Source: Olivibacter sp. SDN3
GTDB lineage: Bacteria > Bacteroidota > Bacteroidia > Sphingobacteriales > Sphingobacteriaceae
Assembly: GCF_014334135.1 (NCBI RefSeq)
Contig: NZ_CP060497.1
Location: 2,294,001 to 2,358,000, forward strand
Length of the DNA stretch: 64,000 nucleotides
Direction: 5' to 3'
Shown: positions 27,721-52,775 of the stretch, in pieces
Numbering within the stretch: position 1 is the first letter of the stretch
Layout: every line of letters begins with the position of its first letter
The notes under the pieces: model-generated
What the model saw: only the letters and a program-made list of their open reading frames with translations
What the model was told of the DNA's origin: nothing
Database searches by the model: none
Program-made: the position numbers and the translations under genes

Positions 27721-28737
27721 TCAACTATGATGTTCTGTAGAGCCTCTATATACCAGTTCGGGAGCTAAAACAATTGTTCTGCTAGCTACAGAGCCACCCT
27801 GAATTTTTTCCAATACCAGTTCGGCAGCAGCTTCTCCCATTTTTTCGAGAGGTTGCTCAACTGTGGTTAATGCCGGATAAACAATGGTCGATAATTCGGT
27901 TCCGGAAAAACTGGCAATGGCAACCTCATCGGGAATTTTAACGTTATTTTCAAGGAGAAAGTTCATTGCTCCAATCGCTAAGGTATCGGTAAATGCAAAA
28001 ATAGCATCGAATTGAACCTTTTTATGCATCAGATGTCGTACAGCATTTCGTCCATATTCAAAACCTATACCTTCCGTTTTTACGATTAAATCTTGATCAA
28101 AAAGCTGATGTTTTGTAAGGATACGTTGGTATCCCATTGCCCTTTCAGTTGCGTTCCGAATGGAAGAAGGACCCATGATATGGGCGATTCTTTTCCGGCC
28201 AATCCCAATGAGATGTTCCACCATTAGAGAGGCTTTAATATGATCGTTTACAATAACTTTCGAAACGTTCAGAGAAGTACTTGGTATTCTGTCAAAGAAG
28301 ATCAATGGTGTTCCTCTTTCCAGAATTTCCTGATATAAATCCTGATTGTATGTCTCGTGGCACAAGTTAATAATGATAGCTTCTACATTAAATTCTTCCA
28401 GAAACAAGAGATGCTGTCTTTCTATTGCAGGGCTCTCGTCCGACTGTAAAATAATAATTCTGTAACCTTGCGGATTGAGGGTTTTTTGGATTCCGCGTAA
28501 TACAGCAGTAGAAAACGGCGTTACCATTTCGGGTACTACAAATCCAATGTTTTTAGACTGCCCATATTTTAAGTTCAGCGCAGCCGGATTAGGCTTATAA
28601 CCCAATTTTTCTGCTGCTTGTAATACTCTTTTCTTGGTCTCTGGATGTATACTTTTATCATTAACAAATGCCCTGGAAATTGTCGATGTTGATAATGATA
28701 AGTGTTTCGAAAGGTCTTTTATGGTTATGCGTTTCAT
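27721..28737 (-). CDS. LacI-family transcriptional regulator
   Basis: From the ATG at 28737 the product is 338 residues. The N-terminal helix-turn-helix reads ITIKDLSKHLSLSTSTISRA, with a hinge helix NPAALNLKYGQSKNIG and then a periplasmic-binding-like ligand domain (IGFVVPEMVTPFSTAVL, FAFTDTLAIGAMNFL). It is transcribed divergently from the dehydrogenase/permease pair. Two operator-like sites lie in the shared promoter region, so it probably represses that catabolic pair and itself until its sugar-derived ligand is bound. Confidence 0.93.
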   Translation of the reverse strand: MKRITIKDLSKHLSLSTSTISRAFVNDKSIHPETKKRVLQAAEKLGYKPNPAALNLKYGQSKNIGFVVPEMVTPFSTAVLRGIQKTLNPQGYRIIILQSDESPAIERQHLLFLEEFNVEAIIINLCHETYNQDLYQEILERGTPLIFFDRIPSTSLNVSKVIVNDHIKASLMVEHLIGIGRKRIAHIMGPSSIRNATERAMGYQRILTKHQLFDQDLIVKTEGIGFEYGRNAVRHLMHKKVQFDAIFAFTDTLAIGAMNFLLENNVKIPDEVAIASFSGTELSTIVYPALTTVEQPLEKMGEAAAELVLEKIQGGSVASRTIVLAPELVYRGSTEHHS

Positions 28738-28804
28738 GATTTTGCCCAATTAAGGTAGTAAAATTTGCCATTAAGTGCTAGCAAAAGTTAAAAGACTTTT
28801 ACAT

Positions 28805-28840
28805 TTGGTAACGATCCCACAAGATTGGTAACGATCCCAA
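28805..28840. promoter_or_regulatory. Twin LacI-type operators
   Basis: The 15-base TTGGTAACGATCCCA occurs twice, at 28805-28819 and 28825-28839, exactly 20 bp apart (two helical turns). Each is an imperfect palindrome centred on CG, the usual form of LacI-family operators. The position, between the divergent regulator and dehydrogenase genes, supports control by the adjacent LacI protein. Confidence 0.7.
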
Positions 28841-28924
28841 ATCGTTTTTCTTTGGGATTATGCTTACTAATTTACAATTATTGATTTAATTTACCATCGT
28901 AAGCCAATTAAACATAACAATAAA

Positions 28925-30361
28925 ATGAATATCATACCTTATAATTATGATCCCAATACGATCGAATCTGGCATATTGCATATTGGTGTTGGCAACTTCC
29001 ATAGAGCACATCAGCAGTTTTATATCAATAGACTATTAGCAGATAAAGATCAACATGGGTGGGGAATATGTGGCGTATGCTTATTACCTTCAGATCAAAA
29101 AATAGTTGAAAATCTAAGGTCGCAGCATCTTGATTACACACTAACTGTTTTTGGTAGAGACGGCAACGATGAAATCTATAAAGTAGGTTCATTGCGAGAA
29201 TTGCTCTGGGGTATAGAACAGCCGGCAGCAGTAACAAAGAAAATAGCGGAAAGGTCGATTAAAATCGTCACGCTTACTATTACAGAAGGGGGGTACAATC
29301 TAGATAAAGAGACCAATAAGTTTAACCTCGATGATGAAAAAATAAAGCATGATATAGAAAACCCAAGCCAACCTACAACTGTATTCGGTTTTATTGCAGA
29401 AGGACTTCGCAAACGTAAGGAAAATCGTGGTGGAGGTCTTACCATCTTATCGTGCGACAACTTACAGCATAACGGAAGTACAGCTAAAAAAGCCTTCCTA
29501 TCCTTTATGGAAGCACAGGATAAAGAATTAGCCTCTTGGGTCGCAACGAATGTAACGTTCCCTAACAGTATGGTAGATCGTATAACACCTGCCACTACTC
29601 TTGAAGATATTAAAAGGCTTGATCAAATTAGTGGTTTCAATGATAAAGCTCCTGTTTATTGTGAGGACTTTTGTCAGTGGGTAATAGAAGACAACTTTAT
29701 CGCTGGCAGACCTGCTTTAGAGAGGGTGGGTGTCGAGTTTACCAATGATGTAGCTGCCTACGAAAACATGAAACTAAGTCTTTTAAACGCGTCGCATATT
29801 TTATTATCTTATCCATCTTTCATTAAAGGATACCGTAAAGTAGATGAAGCGATGCAGGATGATACGATCTGCCGATACATTCGTGATTTTATGGATATTG
29901 ATATAACGCCGTATGTACCGGCACCTGGCAACACAGACTTGGATCAGTATAAACAAACGCTTATGGAAAGATTTGGCAATCGGTCTGTAAGTGACCAAGT
30001 CAGTAGATTGTGTTTTGACGGTGTTTCAAAGTTTCCTGTATATATTATGCCAAACCTATCTAAAATGATTGACGATCAGAAAGACCTTAGCCGTGTTGCT
30101 TTTCTAATAGCTTCCTATAGACATTACCTAAAATATAAAGTAGATGAAAAGGGATTGTCCTATGAAATTGCAGAACCTTGGTTAACTGTAGACGATAAAA
30201 AATGCATTGCCAGTGACGAACCGATTGATTTCTTGGATTTATCTGCCTTCAAAAGTATTCATTTAAAAAGGGTTGAACCTTTCGTGCTTTTATATAGCAC
30301 ATTTGTAAATCGCATTAAAGATCAAGGTATAACATCAGTATTGATATCTGCTGTTCATTAA
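28925..30361 (+). CDS. Mannitol dehydrogenase family oxidoreductase (mannitol 2-dehydrogenase or fructuronate reductase)
   Basis: The 478-residue protein begins with the long-chain polyol dehydrogenase NAD site (ILHIGVGNFHRAHQQFYINR, residues 17-36). In the C-terminal domain it carries the catalytic-lysine helix KLSLLNASHILLSYPSF (Lys about 283). Length matches mannitol 2-dehydrogenase and UxuB/UxaB. These enzymes interconvert ketoses and polyols or hexuronates using NAD(P)H in the cytosol. The partner MFS permease 33 bp downstream and the divergent LacI regulator define a small sugar-utilisation locus. The substrate cannot be chosen by eye. Confidence 0.88.
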   Translation: MNIIPYNYDPNTIESGILHIGVGNFHRAHQQFYINRLLADKDQHGWGICGVCLLPSDQKIVENLRSQHLDYTLTVFGRDGNDEIYKVGSLRELLWGIEQPAAVTKKIAERSIKIVTLTITEGGYNLDKETNKFNLDDEKIKHDIENPSQPTTVFGFIAEGLRKRKENRGGGLTILSCDNLQHNGSTAKKAFLSFMEAQDKELASWVATNVTFPNSMVDRITPATTLEDIKRLDQISGFNDKAPVYCEDFCQWVIEDNFIAGRPALERVGVEFTNDVAAYENMKLSLLNASHILLSYPSFIKGYRKVDEAMQDDTICRYIRDFMDIDITPYVPAPGNTDLDQYKQTLMERFGNRSVSDQVSRLCFDGVSKFPVYIMPNLSKMIDDQKDLSRVAFLIASYRHYLKYKVDEKGLSYEIAEPWLTVDDKKCIASDEPIDFLDLSAFKSIHLKRVEPFVLLYSTFVNRIKDQGITSVLISAVH

Positions 30362-30394
30362 AACAGCTGTATACTTAAATTATTTGGTAAAATA

Positions 30395-31717
30395 ATGGAA
30401 TCAACATCACAAAAGGCGACCATATTACCCTTCCTTATCGTAACCTTTATATATTTTCTCGTAGGTTTCTTGACTACGGTGAACGAACAGTTACAGGCAC
30501 CTCTACAGTTTACTTTTCTCGAGAACTCAGGCAGGCTCAAAAATACCTTCACCACATTAATTTCTTTCTTTTTCTTTTTAGGTTACTTAATAAATGGAAC
30601 ATTGGGAAGTAAATGGGTAAATGCCTTTGGTTATAAAAAGACCATATTACGGGGTTTGTTATTCATGATTTTTGGCTTGTGTACGTATTTGTTATCTTCC
30701 CTTGTGGGATATAAGTACCCAAATGTGAGTTTACAGTATGGCGATGCTACTATTCCTTCTGGGTTTTTTATTTTCCTATTGGGGTCTTATTTAATGGGAA
30801 CATCTGCAGCTATTATTCAGGTGGTTGTTAATCCTTATGTGGCGTCTTACCATCTGCCCGGAACCCAGCCTGTGCAGCGCTTAAATATTACAACTGCTGT
30901 TAACTCTGTAGGAACAACATCTGCTCCTTTTTTTGTTACGGCGATCATATTTAGTGGTATATCCATAGAACAAATACAGGTTCGGCAACTGATTATTCCT
31001 TTTATTTTTATTATCGGCTGTATAGGTATCGTATTTCTGATGACCAAGAGGGTTCATTTACCTGATATCGCCCATACCCGGGCGGCTGTAGGGGAGAAGT
31101 TGGAAAGAAGTATCTGGTCTTTTCGGCATTTCGCACTGGGAGTTCTTGCCATATTCTTTTATGTGGGGACTGAAGTGGCCATAGGGGCCAATATTAATCT
31201 GCATGCTTTCGAACTTATGCGTTCCGGTCATCCGATAACGTTTTTTGGGAGAACGGACATGGTATTTGGCGGGTTGGATTTGGGAATACATGCGTTGCTT
31301 TCCACCTTATATTGGGGTGGGTTTCTTGTGGGGCGGTCTATATCCAGTTTTTTCAGTAATATTTCAGCAAGAACACAACTCACTACCACAACGGTATTGG
31401 CAACCATACTCGCCCTTGTGAGTATGATAACACAAAATTTATGGTTTTTGGTCGCTATCGGTCTTTTACATTCATCGATGTGGAGCTGCATTTATTCGCT
31501 GGCAATTAAAGGGCTTAATAAATACACCTCAAAAGCCTCTGGTGTGTTTATATCGGCTGTTTTCGGAGGAGCAGTGTTCACCCTAGTACAAGGAGGGTTA
31601 GCCGATATACTGGGGTCTTGGCGATGGACTTGGACTTTAACTGTTGTATGTGAACTTTTGATGCTTTATTACGCTCGAATAGGGTCTCGTGTAAAAGAAA
31701 AAGATATTGTGAATTAG
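30395..31717 (+). CDS. Sugar MFS transporter, FucP/GluP-like
   Basis: The 440-residue inner-membrane protein has 12 predicted helices. Features of the fucose/glucose:H+ symporter (FHS) branch are visible: FLVGFLTTVNEQLQAPLQ in helix 1, LGYLINGTLGSKWVNAFGYKK after helix 2, and FFYVGTEVAIGANI at the start of the second half. It starts 33 bp after the dehydrogenase and is probably co-transcribed under the same LacI operators. It would import the sugar or sugar alcohol that the dehydrogenase uses. Confidence 0.9.
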   Translation: MESTSQKATILPFLIVTFIYFLVGFLTTVNEQLQAPLQFTFLENSGRLKNTFTTLISFFFFLGYLINGTLGSKWVNAFGYKKTILRGLLFMIFGLCTYLLSSLVGYKYPNVSLQYGDATIPSGFFIFLLGSYLMGTSAAIIQVVVNPYVASYHLPGTQPVQRLNITTAVNSVGTTSAPFFVTAIIFSGISIEQIQVRQLIIPFIFIIGCIGIVFLMTKRVHLPDIAHTRAAVGEKLERSIWSFRHFALGVLAIFFYVGTEVAIGANINLHAFELMRSGHPITFFGRTDMVFGGLDLGIHALLSTLYWGGFLVGRSISSFFSNISARTQLTTTTVLATILALVSMITQNLWFLVAIGLLHSSMWSCIYSLAIKGLNKYTSKASGVFISAVFGGAVFTLVQGGLADILGSWRWTWTLTVVCELLMLYYARIGSRVKEKDIVN

Positions 31718-47919: not shown

Positions 47920-49239
47920 TTATATCAGTTCACTTTTCATCAACGATTTATGGTTTTGCTGCTGCTTCTTAACTTTTTCTTCTTTTTTTCGCCAGTAATT
48001 TGCCAAGATAGAACCAGAGATATTCATCCAGGGACTAAAAATAGCTGCAGCGAGACCTACTGTTTCCAGTTTGCCCATCGTTCCCGCTAATCCAGTAGCC
48101 ATGCCACCATTTTGCAATCCTACTTCAAAGGCTAGCGTACGGGCATCGGCTTTGTTCAATCCTAAGAGCCTGCTGAAGGTATAACCAAAAAAATAACCGG
48201 CCCCATTGTGTATAACAGCAGCTAAAAATAATAGGAATCCAACCTGTAGAAGATTATCTCTTCCTGCTGCGGTAGTAACCATTGTAAAATACACGATACC
48301 TGCCATGGATAAATAAGGCATAAAATCACCTATCTTAGGTGTTCTTTTAGCGAGTAAATGATAAAGTACGCCGATTACAATAGCGCCCGCAAAAAAATTG
48401 CAGACTTCAAGAGTTTCTAAAAGCGGCAACGAAAGATTGGGATAGAACACCTTGTTCCATATCAGTAGATTCACCAATAACCATAGCAGGGCAAACAGCA
48501 TGATATTATTTACCCTTTTGGCTTGATGGAGGGAAGCGGTTTTCAGAAAATCATGAATTAATGCAGCACTTAGCGGTACAATAACGATCTTAATGATTTC
48601 CATCATCATATAGATAAATTTCACTTCGATTAAGGTTCCTGCCAACAATTTCATTAAGAAGGGAGTCATGATTGGTGCAGCGATGGTGGTTATGGCAGTT
48701 ACGGTTACAGAAAGTACGAGGTTACCTCTCGCGATATAGGTCATTACATTAGATGCCAAGCCGCTGGAACAGCATCCTATTAAGATGATACCTGCGGCTA
48801 TTTCCATGTCGAAATGAAAGATCTTGGTCAATAGAAAGCCCATCAGAGGCATAACGGTAAAGTGGCTCAGTAGACCTACAACTACTCCCTTACCGGATTT
48901 AGCAATTCCCGTAAAATCTTTAATGCTCATCTTCATACCCATTCCAAACATCACCAGTTGAATGATAAACAAAATAAGCCATTTGTTGCGCATATCAACA
49001 GATCCGATATGAAGCAATTGTTCCGGATAAATCATTCCACATACAACTGCCGATATAACCCATGCCGTATATTGATAGCCCTGGAGTACAGGGATAGCGC
49101 CTAGCCCAATGCTCCCCGCTATACTGCTAGTTACGGCCATTGCCTGCCATAATTGCTGATGGCCCATAAGTACGGCAGGGAGGAAGATCACAAAGGAAAC
49201 CCCAGCTGTTAGCAAAGCTACTTTTCGGATTGTATTCAT
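47920..49239 (-). CDS. BASS-family (bile acid:Na+ symporter-like) transporter
   Basis: The 439-residue membrane protein has the BASS core in its second part: FIIQLVMFGMGMKMSIKDF, GVVVGLLSHFTVMPLMGFLL, IILIGCCSSGLASNVMTYIA and LAFEVGLQNGGMATGLAG. An N-terminal extension of about 80 residues adds two or three helices over the usual size. BASS proteins move organic anions with Na+. It is the last gene of the operon with the RuBisCO-like protein, acid-sugar kinase and racemase-like enzyme, and is probably the importer of their substrate. Confidence 0.85.
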   Translation of the reverse strand: MNTIRKVALLTAGVSFVIFLPAVLMGHQQLWQAMAVTSSIAGSIGLGAIPVLQGYQYTAWVISAVVCGMIYPEQLLHIGSVDMRNKWLILFIIQLVMFGMGMKMSIKDFTGIAKSGKGVVVGLLSHFTVMPLMGFLLTKIFHFDMEIAAGIILIGCCSSGLASNVMTYIARGNLVLSVTVTAITTIAAPIMTPFLMKLLAGTLIEVKFIYMMMEIIKIVIVPLSAALIHDFLKTASLHQAKRVNNIMLFALLWLLVNLLIWNKVFYPNLSLPLLETLEVCNFFAGAIVIGVLYHLLAKRTPKIGDFMPYLSMAGIVYFTMVTTAAGRDNLLQVGFLLFLAAVIHNGAGYFFGYTFSRLLGLNKADARTLAFEVGLQNGGMATGLAGTMGKLETVGLAAAIFSPWMNISGSILANYWRKKEEKVKKQQQNHKSLMKSELI

Positions 49240-49333
49240 CTTAGAAACGGGTTTAGATAGTTATATAGATAAGTTTACAAGCTTCGTGTGGATCATTCTG
49301 CAACTTAAGTTTCCCTGGTTTTGCGTACAAAAT

Positions 49334-49996
49334 TTAATAAATAGTGGTTGCTAAGTATTTTATAGCCATCGCTGGACTCGACAATATTGGCACCTTTTTG
49401 TCTTCTTCGGGGAGTGTATCAACGACCTTGGCCATGGATGCCTGGGCGAGTAAAATGACATCAACTTCATGATTTAACTCTTTTAAAGCGCTGCTTACCA
49501 TTTTATTATGTCGTTCTGAATCTCCACTCATTAATGCCTCAAAAGCTCCTTCACATAACCTGCAGATCAATGTGATGTCTGTATCAGCAAGCGCAGCTCT
49601 CCTTAACACCAGGTCTGCTGTAGGTTCCAGTGTAGTGGGCAATGTTGCGATAATACCTATTCTTTTTCCAATCTTTACCGCTTCATTCGCCATGGCCAAG
49701 TCTACTCGAATAACCGGCACATTACTTAAGGTATCAGCCGTTTCCACGGCTTTGCCAATGGAAGAGCAAGTAACCAAGATGAAATCGGCGCCTGCTTGCT
49801 CTGCAGAAGTTATCTGATTGACCACTCTTTTCGCAGTAGCTGGCGTTAGCTCGCCTTTAGCTATAACATCTTTGATCAGGCTATCATCCACCATGTTGAA
49901 TACGCTTACATCAGGTAAGTGTTCTTGACAAAGCTGTTGAAATACGGGAACTAATGTTGCTGACGTATGTACTAATCCTAATGTTTTATTTTTCAT
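49334..49996 (-). CDS. Asp/Glu racemase-superfamily protein with a single catalytic cysteine
   Basis: The 220-residue protein has the two-lobed fold of aspartate/glutamate/hydantoin racemases, with the first-lobe cysteine in LVTCSSIGKA (Cys77) and GKRIGIIATLPTTLEPT starting the second lobe. At the usual second cysteine the sequence is DVILLAQASMAKV, that is Gln-Ala instead of Cys. Two-base racemisation is therefore unlikely; a lyase, decarboxylase or isomerase role is more probable. It lies in an operon with a DUF1537 kinase and a RuBisCO-like protein, so an acid-sugar substrate is likely. Confidence 0.8.
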   Translation of the reverse strand: MKNKTLGLVHTSATLVPVFQQLCQEHLPDVSVFNMVDDSLIKDVIAKGELTPATAKRVVNQITSAEQAGADFILVTCSSIGKAVETADTLSNVPVIRVDLAMANEAVKIGKRIGIIATLPTTLEPTADLVLRRAALADTDITLICRLCEGAFEALMSGDSERHNKMVSSALKELNHEVDVILLAQASMAKVVDTLPEEDKKVPILSSPAMAIKYLATTIY

Positions 49997-50160
49997 CTGT
50001 CTACATTATTAATATTGGTATGCCTTAGAAGGCATGATTCATAAATGTTTGTTCTCAAAAGATATTGATGGGCCCGTTACACTGGGTTAATGAGCTCATT
50101 TTCGTTAGTGGTACCTTTTAAAGGTGATGAAGCTTGCATAAATTTTCTAACTCATACTGT

Positions 50161-51531
50161 TCACCTATTCATTACGGCCTTAATGAAATAATCTTTTGCA
50201 CCCACTTGTCCGCCTTTAAAATTTATTTCAATACCATTTGCGGGATATCCGATAACGGTATGAGCTTTGCACATCGGTGCTCCGACGGCAAAAGGGCATA
50301 ACATTTCAATAGCTTCTATCCCCATGGTTTTAGCAACAAAACCAGAAGTGTCACCACCAGCAATTACTAACCTTTTTAATTGAATCCGGGACAATATACC
50401 ATTAACGATTAATCCCAACGCCGTTCCAAAAACATTAGCCGAGCTTTTATTTGAAGACATTAAGAGTTTGGATGCCGAATGTAGTCTGTCATCATCCGGC
50501 CCTTTACTCGAATGGATAATCAGGTGCTGCCCCTGATGTAGTAACGCTACTGCTTGTTGCACATAACGGTCAACCAGTTTGCTATGGTTTTCGTTGGAGG
50601 CTAACTGATCTGTGTTTAGCTCAATCTCAGCAAAATTATTAGCTAAGGCATGGCTTATTTGTTCAGCTGTTATTGGAGAACAACTTCCAGAAACAACTAA
50701 CAGGGGAGAGGCTGGCTCAGGCTGTGGCCAATCTTGTTTGCTTTTAATGGTTTTTTGGGTATTCAGATAGCTACCCAATGCCATTTCTACTCCAGATGAA
50801 CCAACCGAGAAGAGTGCTTTACCTTTTTTTCTCCTCTTTTCTATTAAAGCGCCCACCAATGTCAAGTGAGATTCATTCAAAGAATCAAATAAAATAATTG
50901 CCGAATCTTTTACTAGACTTTCAAGTTTTTTTAAACAGTGTTCTTCACCTTTTTCCAGATCAAGGACGTCGACAAGTCCAATGGATTTGGAAGTCTGTTT
51001 GGATAGATGCAGTTGCAGGTCACTTTCATCTGAAGGGGTAATAGGGTGTTTGCGCATAGCGGGGTGCCTGTCTAAACGATAGATCTTCCCACCGCCTCCT
51101 ATACCCATCCTTGCGAACAGGTTTCCGAATGCACAATATCTTCCCAACGCCGGCGCAGCCACTAACAGTGGCAAGGGTTGGTTTCCAAATATTTCTAGTC
51201 CGGTATCTATTGCTCTTCCAATACTCCCTATATGAGGTGCTGAATCAAAAGTCGAACAAACTTTGTAGTGCACATGTATTGGGTTGATTTCCCGTAAAGC
51301 GGTAAAAGATTTATTTAACTCTTTTTCCATTGCTTCGGGAGTCATGCTCCGGCTTGTTCCTGCAATACCGATGGCCTTTATACCTTCAAATTTTTTCAGC
51401 CTTTCTTCACTTGGGGTGTCTATGAATAAAACAGTTTCTATACCTGCTTTACAAAGAAAATCGAGTGCATCAGTAGATCCGGTAAAATCATCACCGTAAA
51501 AAGCCAGGAATAGTCTGTTTTCATTTGTCAT
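50161..51531 (-). CDS. Four-carbon acid sugar kinase family protein (DUF1537; OiaK-like candidate)
   Basis: The 456-residue kinase has the N-terminal substrate-domain motif FYGDDFTGSTDALDFL (residues 11-26) and the C-terminal nucleotide-domain motif AGGDTSGFVAKTMG. It fits the DUF1537 kinases (OtnK, DtnK, LtnK, OiaK), which phosphorylate acid sugars such as threonate, erythronate or 3-oxo-isoapionate. Its start overlaps the stop of the RuBisCO-like gene by 4 bp. In characterised apiose/apionate pathways a DUF1537 kinase (OiaK) feeds a RuBisCO-like enzyme (OiaX or OiaT). The same pairing here makes 3-oxo-isoapionate the leading candidate substrate. Confidence 0.85.
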   Translation of the reverse strand: MTNENRLFLAFYGDDFTGSTDALDFLCKAGIETVLFIDTPSEERLKKFEGIKAIGIAGTSRSMTPEAMEKELNKSFTALREINPIHVHYKVCSTFDSAPHIGSIGRAIDTGLEIFGNQPLPLLVAAPALGRYCAFGNLFARMGIGGGGKIYRLDRHPAMRKHPITPSDESDLQLHLSKQTSKSIGLVDVLDLEKGEEHCLKKLESLVKDSAIILFDSLNESHLTLVGALIEKRRKKGKALFSVGSSGVEMALGSYLNTQKTIKSKQDWPQPEPASPLLVVSGSCSPITAEQISHALANNFAEIELNTDQLASNENHSKLVDRYVQQAVALLHQGQHLIIHSSKGPDDDRLHSASKLLMSSNKSSANVFGTALGLIVNGILSRIQLKRLVIAGGDTSGFVAKTMGIEAIEMLCPFAVGAPMCKAHTVIGYPANGIEINFKGGQVGAKDYFIKAVMNR

Positions 51532-52775
51532 TGCTTTCTTCCAAATTTGGCCACAGATTGCGCAAATGCTGGATGACGTTTAGCCGCTTCCTCGATAGAG
51601 AGTCCAGCTATCGCCGCTTCCCAGGCCTGCTGCAGTGCTTTTACACCACCGGCAGCTCCAGCGGGATGTCCCAGAATACCGCCGCCAGCCATGTATAGTA
51701 GGTCTGTGGTTTTTGTTCTGCGATAAGTTTCTGGTGCCTGCCCACCCCATTGTCCTGACGAAACAACAGGTAAAATGGTTTTTGTTCCTACAATAGGCGC
51801 TAGACAGGATTGGATAGACCTGACGACGGAGTCATCCGATTCCCAGAATTTATTTTGTAAGCCATTCACATGAATTTGGTCCACACCGACCAATCTCCAT
51901 AATTTTTGGTACGCGGGGAATGCTATCCCCAGAAGAGGATGTCGATTGAGCATTCCCCAGCCATTACGATGGCCGTGAATGGCAAGTTGTCTGTTATCAC
52001 AAAGCTTTTTGACACCCGAAATGCCTATGCTATTGAGGCTGATCATGGCACAAGTGCCACCAGAGGCTACAATCTTATCGTAATTCCGTTGCATGGTGTC
52101 GATTTCATCGCTGATGTTAAAGGCATACATAACCTTTTTTCCTGTTTTATCTGCATGATCGTTAATGATTTTCATGACCGCATCTACCCGTTTATCAAAA
52201 GGAGAGTTTGCAGCTGATGAAAGAAGTTCGTCATCTTTGATGAAATCTATTTCCGCATCTATCAATAACTGTACAATGTCTGCGGTTTGTTCTGGTGTGA
52301 GCCCTATACTAGGTTTGACTATGGTTCCAATTAATGGTCTGTGGTATACATCCGTGAGTTTTCTCGTTCCTTCTATACCGAATTCCGGACCTTTAAAATG
52401 TTGGGTAAGGGATAAGGGAAGCTCTATGTCCATCAATTTTAAGCCAGTAAATTGCGTCAGTTCATAAAGGTTTCCCTGTAAAGTAGAGATCATTACAGGA
52501 AGGTTCTTGCCAAAGTTCTCCACGGACCACGAAACTTTAATATGGGCTCTTTGATATAGTTTTCCGTTGTTTGCTATTCCAGGCATTGCCGGTTCTTTAA
52601 CGGCATCCAATAAGTCAATGGCCTCGACTTTTGCAGCGAACCTTTGCTTTAGTTCATCGGTTTCGCCAGGTATAGGCACAAAAGTGCCCGAGGATTGTTC
52701 GCCAGCTAAGACCGCTGCTGCGTGCTCAGGGGCCAAAGGGGTTTCTATGTAATAATGAGCTACCACTCTTTCCAT
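51528..52775 (-). CDS. RuBisCO-like protein (form IV; OiaX/OiaT-like candidate)
   Basis: The 415-residue protein is a RuBisCO large-subunit homologue. The carbamylated-lysine motif is kept as FIKDDEL (Lys180, Asp182, Glu183), and IHGHRNGWG keeps the active-site His-x-His-Arg. GTIVKPSIGL keeps Lys154 but has Ser where true RuBisCO has the second Lys of KPK. The loop-6 region VNGLQNKFWE lacks the canonical GKLEG. GGGILGHPAG binds phosphate. It is therefore a RuBisCO-like enzyme, not a CO2 fixer. It heads an operon with a DUF1537 kinase, supporting decarboxylation or hydrolysis of a phosphorylated branched acid sugar. Confidence 0.9.
   Translation of the reverse strand: MERVVAHYYIETPLAPEHAAAVLAGEQSSGTFVPIPGETDELKQRFAAKVEAIDLLDAVKEPAMPGIANNGKLYQRAHIKVSWSVENFGKNLPVMISTLQGNLYELTQFTGLKLMDIELPLSLTQHFKGPEFGIEGTRKLTDVYHRPLIGTIVKPSIGLTPEQTADIVQLLIDAEIDFIKDDELLSSAANSPFDKRVDAVMKIINDHADKTGKKVMYAFNISDEIDTMQRNYDKIVASGGTCAMISLNSIGISGVKKLCDNRQLAIHGHRNGWGMLNRHPLLGIAFPAYQKLWRLVGVDQIHVNGLQNKFWESDDSVVRSIQSCLAPIVGTKTILPVVSSGQWGGQAPETYRRTKTTDLLYMAGGGILGHPAGAAGGVKALQQAWEAAIAGLSIEEAAKRHPAFAQSVAKFGRKQ

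What the first reader, a model, noticed from the sequence alone, without database searches (positions are those of the whole stretch)
47920..52775. RuBisCO-like protein operon with DUF1537 kinase, single-cysteine racemase-like enzyme and BASS transporter
Four minus-strand genes form one catabolic operon. The RuBisCO-like gene overlaps the kinase by 4 bp. Seen: the RLP keeps the carbamylation lysine motif FIKDDE but lacks the KPK and GKLEG residues of true RuBisCO. Known: in apionate catabolism OiaK (DUF1537) and OiaX or OiaT (RLP) act in series. Inference: the operon degrades 3-oxo-isoapionate or a related branched acid sugar, with the racemase-like enzyme and the BASS carrier as new components not found in the described pathways.
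Basis: partly seen in the sequence, partly recalled or inferred. Interest (0 to 1): 0.78.

Follow-up and report, generated by a model that had tools for sequence, protein, structure and literature searches.

The report
Probable aceric acid degradation gene cassette
A four-gene set found in many Bacteroidota, built around a RuBisCO relative, probably digests aceric acid, a rare plant pectin sugar for which I found no described breakdown route.

Summary
The four genes are real and correctly placed. RLP-kinase-racemase-BASS is a conserved cassette: contiguous and on one strand in 67 of 80 related loci. The RLP is OiaX-like, not MtnW or RuBisCO, but fails the OiaX cut-off and keeps a more RuBisCO-like active site than the two named OiaX compared.

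The apionate reading is not supported: the apionate-pathway lactonase ApnL passes its cut-off in 0 of 57 cassette-genome handles. Cassette genomes instead carry the RG-II aceric acid hydrolase (GH127, BT1003 type): 7 of 7 in a 325-genome sample in which 18 have it, and 50 of 50 genomes reached from loci. That hydrolase is the gene directly upstream of the RLP, same strand, in 23 of 80 loci; an apiosidase homologue is in 1 of 80.

Best reading: the cassette imports L-aceric acid, isomerises it to its ketose (a methyl homologue of 3-oxo-isoapionate), phosphorylates it, and lets the RLP cleave or decarboxylate it. The substrate rests on genomics; each enzyme step is inferred. I found no published pathway.

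The parts
51528..52775 (-). RuBisCO-like protein (415 aa), OiaX-like; proposed to act on the phosphorylated beta-keto acid made from aceric acid
   Evidence: NF042437 OiaX 509.6 bits (cut-off 700), PF00016 223.8 bits; active-site table; tree
50161..51531 (-). DUF1537 (SBD_N + NBD_C) acid-sugar kinase (456 aa), OiaK-like; proposed aceric-ketose 1-kinase
   Evidence: NF042436 OiaK 428.7 bits (cut-off 700), Pfam PF07005/PF17042
51528..51531 (-). ATGA overlap of RLP stop and kinase start
   Evidence: sequence; an ATGA or GTGA at the RLP stop in 15 of 67 contiguous loci
49334..49996 (-). Asp/Glu racemase-superfamily enzyme (220 aa) with one of the two catalytic Cys (C77); proposed aldose-ketose isomerase of aceric acid
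   Evidence: PF01177 87.8 bits; C77 in 76 of 76; model pLDDT 95.1, VIA Z 21.1 to 1jfl; present in exactly the same 7 of 325 genomes as the RLP
47920..49239 (-). BASS (SBF) family transporter (439 aa), PanS (pantoate carrier) among its nearest named families; proposed aceric acid importer
   Evidence: PF01758 114.6 bits (over cut-off); TIGR00841 209 bits and NF047939 PanS 203.2 bits, both below cut-off; fourth gene of the cassette in 67 of 80 loci

Best explanation
The four genes form a mobile catabolic cassette for L-aceric acid (3-C-carboxy-5-deoxy-L-xylose), a sugar of rhamnogalacturonan-II side chain B.

Shown by genomics: every cassette genome searched for it (7 of 7 and 50 of 50) also has the GH127 aceric acid hydrolase, often as the gene directly upstream of the RLP, and none of 57 handles has the known apionate lactonase over its cut-off.

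Inferred steps: GH127 frees aceric acid in the periplasm; BASS imports the anion; an aldose-ketose isomerase, most likely the racemase-fold protein using its single catalytic Cys77 as a one-base proton shuttle, makes CH2OH-CO-C(OH)(COOH)-CHOH-CH3, the methyl homologue of 3-oxo-isoapionate; the DUF1537 kinase phosphorylates its C1-OH; the RLP, through a Mg-enediolate on its carbamylated Lys180, breaks down this beta-keto acid. I slightly favour C-C cleavage of the OiaT kind, giving 3-phosphoglycerate + lactate, over simple decarboxylation to a 5-deoxypentulose 1-phosphate.

Likelihoods: aceric acid as substrate about 0.7; kinase then RLP on the ketose phosphate about 0.55; racemase as isomerase about 0.4; cleavage versus decarboxylation about 0.5 : 0.4.
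For: (1) Co-occurrence: cassette RLP (68-100% id, over 640 bits; next best 30%, 209.6 bits) in 7 of 325 sampled genomes of the phylum; aceric acid hydrolase NF049879 over cut-off in 18 of 325, including all 7; 4.5e-10 by hypergeometric count, not tree-corrected. All 50 genomes reached from 50 of the 80 loci hold exactly one over cut-off (at least one genome, G017/G375, is in both sets). Own genome: 1165.2 bits at C1:3001720-3003684.

(2) Adjacency: that GH127 cluster is in 33 of 80 loci (67 of the 80 have both 10-kb flanks) and is immediately upstream of the RLP, same strand, in 23 of 80; 50 and 36 bases separate the matched ranges in G017 and G321. The representative scores 1174.7 against a cut-off of 950.

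(3) Against apiose: a homologue of four PF13204 proteins lies in 1 of 80 loci. Given PF13204, the cassette is in 7 of 18 genomes with the aceric acid hydrolase and 0 of 17 without (p 0.0047). ApnL over cut-off in 0 of 57 handles, positive control 899 bits; ApnO-like protein without a credible match in 26 of 26, positives 3 of 3.

(4) Cassette unity: racemase found in exactly the RLP genomes. In the window's genome the GH106-GH127-DUF5703 cluster lacks the cassette (and the SASA gene) that sits at that spot in Pedobacter; G173 shows GH106-GH127-SASA-DUF5703 with no cassette.

(5) Chemistry (own reasoning; name of aceric acid from PMC5698469, passage): DUF1537 kinases known to me phosphorylate a primary OH; aceric acid gains one only as its ketose. 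The four genes then match import, isomerisation, kinase and RLP.

(6) The RLP keeps E60, T65, N123, K175, K201, D203, E204, H294, R295, H327 and K334 equivalents in 79 of 79; two named OiaX have D, G and Q at 60, 123 and 327.
Against: In the window itself no RG-II gene of the common clusters is beside the cassette; the hydrolase is 655 kb away. 11 of 18 sampled genomes with the hydrolase lack the cassette, and the control Bacteroides ihuae has the hydrolase but no RuBisCO-family match, so the cassette is not required to release the sugar. Apiosidase-family genes also occur in all 7 cassette genomes, so co-occurrence alone marks RG-II degraders; adjacency and the conditional test carry the substrate claim.

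ApnL-like fragments below cut-off exist in 2 of 57 handles (G381 and G402, about 180 bits), about as strong as the one beside an RLP in Shinella (182.8 bits), so a divergent lactonase is not excluded there. The GH127 next to an RLP in the alphaproteobacterium L116 is not an aceric acid hydrolase (87.4 bits), so there is no cross-phylum confirmation. RhaD, which I expected to split a decarboxylation product, has no match in 57 of 57 handles. The quick tree places the RLP next to OiaX, a decarboxylase, which argues for decarboxylation rather than cleavage. No racemase-fold enzyme is known to me to isomerise aldoses.
Confidence: 0.62

Rival explanations
1. Apionate route: the kinase and RLP degrade 3-oxo-isoapionate from D-apiose of RG-II, as OiaK with OiaX or OiaT do; apionate is made by unknown or divergent enzymes.
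For: Nearest named families are OiaK and OiaX; RLP clade is sister to OiaX; an apiosidase-family gene is in all 7 sampled cassette genomes; ApnL-like fragments near 180 bits in 2 of 57 handles.
Against: ApnL over cut-off in 0 of 57 handles, no credible ApnO-like match in 26 of 26; apiosidase homologue in 1 of 80 loci versus aceric acid hydrolase in 33 of 80; cassette in 0 of 17 genomes with PF13204 but no aceric acid hydrolase; neither equivalog cut-off is met.
Confidence: 0.17
2. Aceric acid cassette in which the RLP only decarboxylates the ketose 1-phosphate, giving 5-deoxy-L-xylulose (or ribulose) 1-phosphate, split by an aldolase to dihydroxyacetone phosphate + acetaldehyde.
For: RLP clade is sister to the decarboxylase OiaX; a 5-deoxyribulose-1-phosphate aldolase step to acetaldehyde + DHAP is proposed in print (PMC6302742, passages).
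Against: No aldolase in the cassette; no RhaD (TIGR02624) match in 57 of 57 handles (bifunctional RhaD fusions and FucA not tested); the active site lacks the changes seen in the two named OiaX.
Confidence: 0.27
3. Another branched acid of RG-II or plant matter, for example hamamelonate (from D-hamamelose), or an oxidised derivative of aceric acid, with the GFO/IDH dehydrogenases of neighbouring clusters as first enzymes.
For: An RLP in Ochrobactrum is reported in hamamelose breakdown (PMC8914248 passages; PMC10176493 reference list); GFO/IDH genes of two clusters lie in 17 and 13 of 80 loci.
Against: Hamamelose is not an RG-II sugar (recalled), while the cassette tracks the aceric acid hydrolase; the dehydrogenases are not constant.
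Confidence: 0.1
4. The cassette is a general acid-sugar scavenging operon that rides with RG-II clusters by ecology and not by substrate.
For: In the window's genome it stands alone, 655 kb from the hydrolase; several loci (for example L009, L010, L032) show no gene of the common clusters beside it.
Against: 50 of 50 and 7 of 7 co-occurrence and direct adjacency in several different gene arrangements.
Confidence: 0.1

Closest known systems
OiaK/OiaX (3-oxo-isoapionate kinase / 3-oxo-isoapionate-4-phosphate decarboxylase, D-apiose pathway, Carter et al. 2018, not read)
   Same: Same two protein families in the same order, RLP then DUF1537 kinase (for example L113); RLP clade is sister to two named OiaX
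   Different: Both below the NCBIfam equivalog cut-offs; no ApnL over cut-off, no credible ApnO-like match; RLP keeps E60/N123/H327 where two named OiaX have D/G/Q; racemase and BASS genes in the cassette
OiaT (3-oxo-isoapionate-4-phosphate transcarboxylase/hydrolase, Xanthobacter autotrophicus)
   Same: An RLP of the apiose pathways (PMC6302742, passages); a plasmid RLP beside ApnL (L117) shares the Glu/Asn/His pattern of the window RLP
   Different: No OiaT sequence could be obtained, so no direct comparison was made; predicted substrate larger by one methyl group
RG-II degradation clusters of Bacteroides thetaiotaomicron (BT1003 GH127 aceric acid hydrolase)
   Same: The hydrolase that frees aceric acid is in every cassette genome searched for it; BT1003 activity cited in PMC5698469 and PMC10850190 (passages)
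   Different: Those passages concern release of the sugar; the cassette would use it. The control Bacteroides (B. ihuae) has the hydrolase but no RuBisCO-family match
Asp/Glu racemases and arylmalonate decarboxylase
   Same: Same fold: VIA Z 21.1 to 1jfl, rmsd 2.6 over 209 residues; arylmalonate decarboxylase among Foldseek hits
   Different: First catalytic Cys kept (C77), second replaced (Gln185 or Ala186 by alignment); arylmalonate decarboxylase has the opposite arrangement (recalled; the PDB title 'Gly74Cys mutant' agrees)
MtnW (methionine salvage RLP)
   Same: RuBisCO superfamily
   Different: Scores 180.9 and 138.6 bits against cut-offs of 409 and 513.6

Membership tests
OiaX, 3-oxo-isoapionate-4-phosphate decarboxylase | NCBIfam equivalog cut-off NF042437 (700 bits) | tested here: not met
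   509.6 bits; a named Rhizobium OiaX scores 786.7
OiaX, 3-oxo-isoapionate-4-phosphate decarboxylase | Clustering inside the OiaX clade | tested here: inconclusive
   Sister to the two OiaX rows (SH-aLRT 98), not inside; quick tree of 50 rows, only two OiaX
OiaX, 3-oxo-isoapionate-4-phosphate decarboxylase | Active-site pattern of two named OiaX (D60, G123, Q327) | tested here: not met
   E, N, H in 79 of 79 Bacteroidota RLPs
OiaX, 3-oxo-isoapionate-4-phosphate decarboxylase | Decarboxylation of 3-oxo-isoapionate 4-phosphate | not testable with these tools
   needs enzyme assay
OiaT, 3-oxo-isoapionate-4-phosphate transcarboxylase/hydrolase | Clustering with the Xanthobacter OiaT | not tested
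   no OiaT sequence was at hand
OiaK, 3-oxo-isoapionate kinase | NCBIfam equivalog cut-off NF042436 (700 bits) | tested here: not met
   428.7 bits; the kinase beside a named OiaX also scores only 480.1, so the cut-off is not decisive
D-apionate pathway | D-apionate lactonase ApnL (NF049900) in the genome | tested here: not met
   over cut-off in 0 of 57 cassette-genome handles (at least one genome listed twice, G017/G375); partial matches near 180 bits in G381 and G402; control L117 899 bits
D-apionate pathway | ApnO-like oxidoisomerase (identity of the query as ApnO is recalled, not named by NCBIfam) | tested here: not met
   0 of 26 credible (one 21.4-bit match, G361), 3 of 3 plasmid positives
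MtnW (DK-MTP-1-P enolase) | equivalog cut-offs NF007095 (409) or TIGR03332 (513.6) | tested here: not met
   180.9 and 138.6 bits
RuBisCO (forms I-III) | family cut-offs and the Lys175/Lys177/Lys334 set | tested here: not met
   TIGR03326 240 of 497.45 bits, NF003252 219.1 of 438; Lys177 is Ser156, Lys175 and Lys334 kept
Asp/Glu racemase superfamily | fold | tested here: met
   PF01177 over cut-off; Z 21.1 to 1jfl
Asp/Glu racemase (two-base racemase) | two catalytic cysteines | tested here: not met
   second position falls on Ala186 (1jfl) or Gln185 (2eq5, 3qvj), both conserved
RG-II aceric acid utilisation (proposed) | aceric acid hydrolase NF049879 over cut-off in the same genome | tested here: met
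   7 of 7 sampled and 50 of 50 reached from loci, at least one genome in both sets
RG-II aceric acid utilisation (proposed) | growth on, or enzymatic conversion of, aceric acid | not testable with these tools
   needs bench work

The most novel reading that the evidence does not exclude
A complete, self-contained pathway for L-aceric acid in four proteins: BASS import; a racemase-fold, single-catalytic-cysteine aldose-ketose isomerase (a new activity for that superfamily); a 1-kinase; and an RLP that cleaves the branched beta-keto acid phosphate into 3-phosphoglycerate + L-lactate by RuBisCO-type transcarboxylation and hydrolysis (a new RLP reaction), moving between genomes as a cassette.
Probability: 0.22. 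Interest if true: 0.86.

Novelty: new variant of a known kind. Interest (0 to 1): 0.72.

Why it matters
How bacteria use aceric acid once it is cut out of rhamnogalacturonan-II is, as far as my searches of the held library show, not described. The cassette gives four expressible proteins and a substrate prediction that explains why each is needed. It would add a new physiological role for the RuBisCO superfamily, a new substrate for DUF1537 kinases and possibly a new chemistry for the Asp/Glu racemase fold. The one annotated cassette orthologue I saw (Rufibacter, L110) is named 'ribulose-bisphosphate carboxylase large subunit family protein', so it would also correct a misleading annotation.

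Tried and rejected
Considered and rejected or demoted: (a) 3-oxo-isoapionate as substrate, see rivals. (b) MtnW-type methionine salvage. (c) Cross-phylum support from the Croceibacterium plasmid L116, where a GH127-like gene abuts RLP and kinase: it scores 87.4 of 950 bits as aceric acid hydrolase, so I dropped it. (d) RhaD as the downstream aldolase: no match in 57 of 57 handles. (e) A replacement kinase beside the RLP in L018/L055/L059: the ORFs there look like secreted proteins by eye (not scanned), and an OiaK-like gene lies elsewhere in those genomes; of 6 genomes searched only MAG G411 (L023) had none. For L018 I did not look for racemase and BASS elsewhere. (f) Promoter and terminator scans: no richer than shuffles. 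(g) Viral-contig and metagenome scans were not run.

Limits: the 325-genome co-occurrence is not corrected for shared descent (cassette in 4 families, 6 genera of the sample). One search was given 50 of 80 loci; MAGs, short contigs and some Hymenobacter, Dyadobacter and other loci were left out. G017 and G375 appear to be the same genome (same coordinates). The tree used 18 of 78 Bacteroidota locus RLPs plus the window, quick method, with no row named MtnW or OiaT. Locus ORFs come from a mechanical caller, so start codons are approximate, and the RLP of L082 and L086 was missed by it. SusC/D labels are judged by eye. Carter 2018 and Ndeh 2017 could not be read; their content is recalled or taken from papers citing them. 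Arylmalonate decarboxylase architecture, RG-II linkage details, which genes are ApnO, and DUF1537 and OiaT product chemistry are recalled.

Full report
What is there. Four minus-strand genes lie at 47920-52775: RLP (51528-52775), DUF1537 kinase (50161-51531, overlapping the RLP by 4 bp), an Asp/Glu-racemase-superfamily protein (49334-49996) and a BASS transporter (47920-49239). NCBIfam's best models are OiaX (509.6 bits, cut-off 700) and OiaK (428.7 bits, cut-off 700); both are below cut-off. The window lies in a single-contig 6.1-Mb genome; the closest cassette relatives found are Sphingobacterium alkalisoli and S. olei (RLP 86% and 80% identical).

The cassette is a unit. One scan of genome contigs kept the best 80 of 314 related loci; going by record titles all 80 are Bacteroidota (two, L030 and L066, are MAGs named only to phylum; phylum of the genera recalled), with RLPs of 70-86% identity. 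With a mechanical ORF caller, RLP-kinase-racemase-BASS is contiguous and on one strand in 67 of 80. The 13 exceptions are contig ends (L023, L031, L048), an inserted ORF (L042), an inverted racemase-BASS pair (L074, L083), no kinase beside the RLP but an OiaK-like gene elsewhere (L018, L055, L059), one or two genes not called in Hymenobacter (L069, L082, L086), and L022, a second RLP copy with an incomplete kinase in a genome that also has L021. In a sample of 325 genomes of the phylum, RLP orthologues (68-100% identity, over 640 bits; the next match is 209.6 bits at 30%) occur in 7, and the racemase (E <= 1e-20) in exactly the same 7.

The company it keeps. Clustering of neighbouring ORFs showed a recurrent 677-aa GH127 (33 of 80 loci), GH106 (24), GH78-like (20), SASA esterase (19), GH141 (13), GH88 (10) and GH2 (8). 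The GH127 representative scores 1174.7 bits on NCBIfam's aceric acid hydrolase model (cut-off 950). [quoted passage not shown]). It is the gene immediately upstream of the RLP, same strand, in 23 of 80 loci. Arrangements differ (Pedobacter, Chitinophagaceae, Niastella, Fibrella and Flectobacillus types), so the link has been kept or made in several settings.

Co-occurrence. The hydrolase is over cut-off in 18 of 325 sampled genomes, including all 7 with the cassette (hypergeometric 4.5e-10, not corrected for descent). All 50 cassette genomes searched through their loci (50 of the 80 loci were given) have one. The window's genome has one too, at C1:3001720-3003684, 655 kb from the cassette, in a cluster with SusC/D-like genes (judged by eye), GH2, two CoA-transferases, GFO/IDH, MaoC, a FucP-like carrier, GH106 and DUF5703. 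That cluster resembles the Pedobacter one, but the four-gene cassette and the SASA gene are missing between GH127 and DUF5703; genome G173 shows GH106-GH127-SASA-DUF5703 without cassette. I infer that the cassette moves or is lost as a block.

Aceric acid rather than apiose. RG-II also contains apiose, so a control was needed. The apiosidase family PF13204 (E <= 1e-30) is in 35 of 325 genomes and includes all 18 hydrolase genomes and all 7 cassette genomes, so co-occurrence alone cannot separate the two sugars. But the cassette is in 7 of 18 genomes having both families and 0 of 17 having PF13204 alone (p 0.0047), and a homologue of four PF13204 proteins lies in 1 of 80 cassette loci against 33 of 80 for the hydrolase. 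The D-apionate lactonase ApnL (NF049900) passes its cut-off in 0 of 57 handles, while the Microvirga control scores 899; partial matches near 180 bits in G381 and G402 are about as strong as the sub-threshold one beside an RLP in Shinella (182.8), so a divergent lactonase is not excluded there. An ApnO-like protein has no credible match in 26 of 26 and is found in 3 of 3 controls (its identity as ApnO is recalled). Against: 11 of 18 hydrolase genomes lack the cassette.

The RLP. In a 110-row alignment, of the RuBisCO positions examined, Lys177 (Ser156), Trp66 (Phe32), His298 (Trp273) and Leu335 (Phe310) are changed, and the Ser379 column could not be judged because of an offset; the rest keep the RuBisCO residue in 79 of 79 Bacteroidota RLPs (Thr173 in 78), including the equivalents of Lys175, Lys201, Asp203, Glu204, His294, Arg295, His327 and loop-6 Lys334 (the form II row looks out of register at some of these columns, loop 6 included). 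The two named OiaX instead carry Asp60, Gly123 and Gln327; the 14 other plasmid RLPs keep Glu, Asn and His, and one of them (L117) sits beside an ApnL over cut-off. In a quick tree of 50 rows the Bacteroidota RLPs are one clade (SH-aLRT 100), sister to OiaX (98), within a group that also holds the plasmid RLPs and PDB 3nwr (99), apart from RuBisCO and more distant unnamed RLPs; no row named MtnW or OiaT was included. [quoted passage not shown] The retained Glu60/Asn123/His327 pattern makes me lean to cleavage; the sister relation to OiaX leans to decarboxylation.

The racemase-like protein. C77 is invariant (76 of 76). The second catalytic Cys falls on Ala186 in the alignment to 1jfl and on Gln185 in those to 2eq5 and 3qvj; both residues are conserved and neither is Cys. 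The AlphaFold model (29 sequences, pLDDT 95.1, pTM 0.89) matches aspartate racemase 1jfl at Z 21.1, rmsd 2.6 over 209 residues. A two-base racemisation is therefore unlikely. A one-base proton shuttle, as in cis-enediol aldose-ketose isomerisation, is my inference.

Mechanism. Inference from structure: aceric acid has an aldehyde at C1, OH at C2, OH and COOH at C3, OH at C4 and a methyl at C5. A DUF1537 kinase needs a primary hydroxyl (recalled), which exists only after isomerisation to CH2OH-CO-C(OH)(COOH)-CHOH-CH3, a beta-keto, alpha-hydroxy branched acid that differs from 3-oxo-isoapionate by one methyl in place of a hydrogen. Phosphorylation at C1 then gives an RLP substrate. Decarboxylation would give a 5-deoxypentulose 1-phosphate; OiaT-type carboxyl transfer and hydrolysis would give 3-phosphoglycerate + lactate. 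A canonical RhaD that could split the former has no match in 57 of 57 handles, while the latter needs no further dedicated enzyme. BASS relatives include the pantoate carrier PanS, pantoate being a small branched hydroxy acid, so uptake of the aceric acid anion is plausible. None of these steps is shown.

Literature. Searches for 'aceric acid' with 'rhamnogalacturonan II' (40 papers, 30 listed), with 'catabolism' (6 papers), with RG-II and GH127 (32 papers, 20 listed) and with 'Rubisco' (2 papers), and for 'apionate' with 'RuBisCO-like protein' (0), showed no paper on aceric acid catabolism or an RLP in it, judged from listings, abstract starts and the passages read. Subscription papers are mostly not held.

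Verdict. A real, conserved and interesting cassette. L-aceric acid is the best-supported substrate.

Noticed in passing
L116:5175-9528 (Croceibacterium plasmid NZ_CP156083.1): A GH127-like gene (not an aceric acid hydrolase, 87.4 bits) directly abuts an OiaX-like RLP and a DUF1537 kinase in an alphaproteobacterium from a sponge: possibly a parallel pathway for another branched acid sugar.
   Followed up: partly
L095:5844-10828 (window genome C1:2991844-2996828): In the RG-II cluster, a solute-binding-like protein that starts without an obvious signal peptide (by eye), two family III CoA-transferases, a GFO/IDH and a MaoC dehydratase form a conserved block beside GH106-GH127; related blocks are in other loci. 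Its role is unknown.
   Followed up: partly
L113, L122 (named OiaX) against the other RLPs: The two named OiaX carry Asp60, Gly123 and Gln327 where the 14 other plasmid RLPs keep Glu, Asn and His; this may mark the switch from C-C cleavage to decarboxylation.
   Followed up: no
L110:12001-16692 (Rufibacter tibetensis plasmid NZ_CP012644.1): The whole four-gene cassette sits on a plasmid typed as mobilizable, next to a pectinesterase-family gene.
   Followed up: no
L022:10001-11523 (Pontibacter qinzhouensis): A second RLP copy stands beside an incomplete kinase gene, without racemase or BASS in the locus, in a genome that also has the L021 cassette.
   Followed up: no
window 27724-31714: A polyol dehydrogenase/fructuronate reductase-like gene and an MFS sugar transporter (both below NCBIfam cut-offs) with a LacI-looking gene upstream (by eye); unrelated to the finding.
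   Followed up: no
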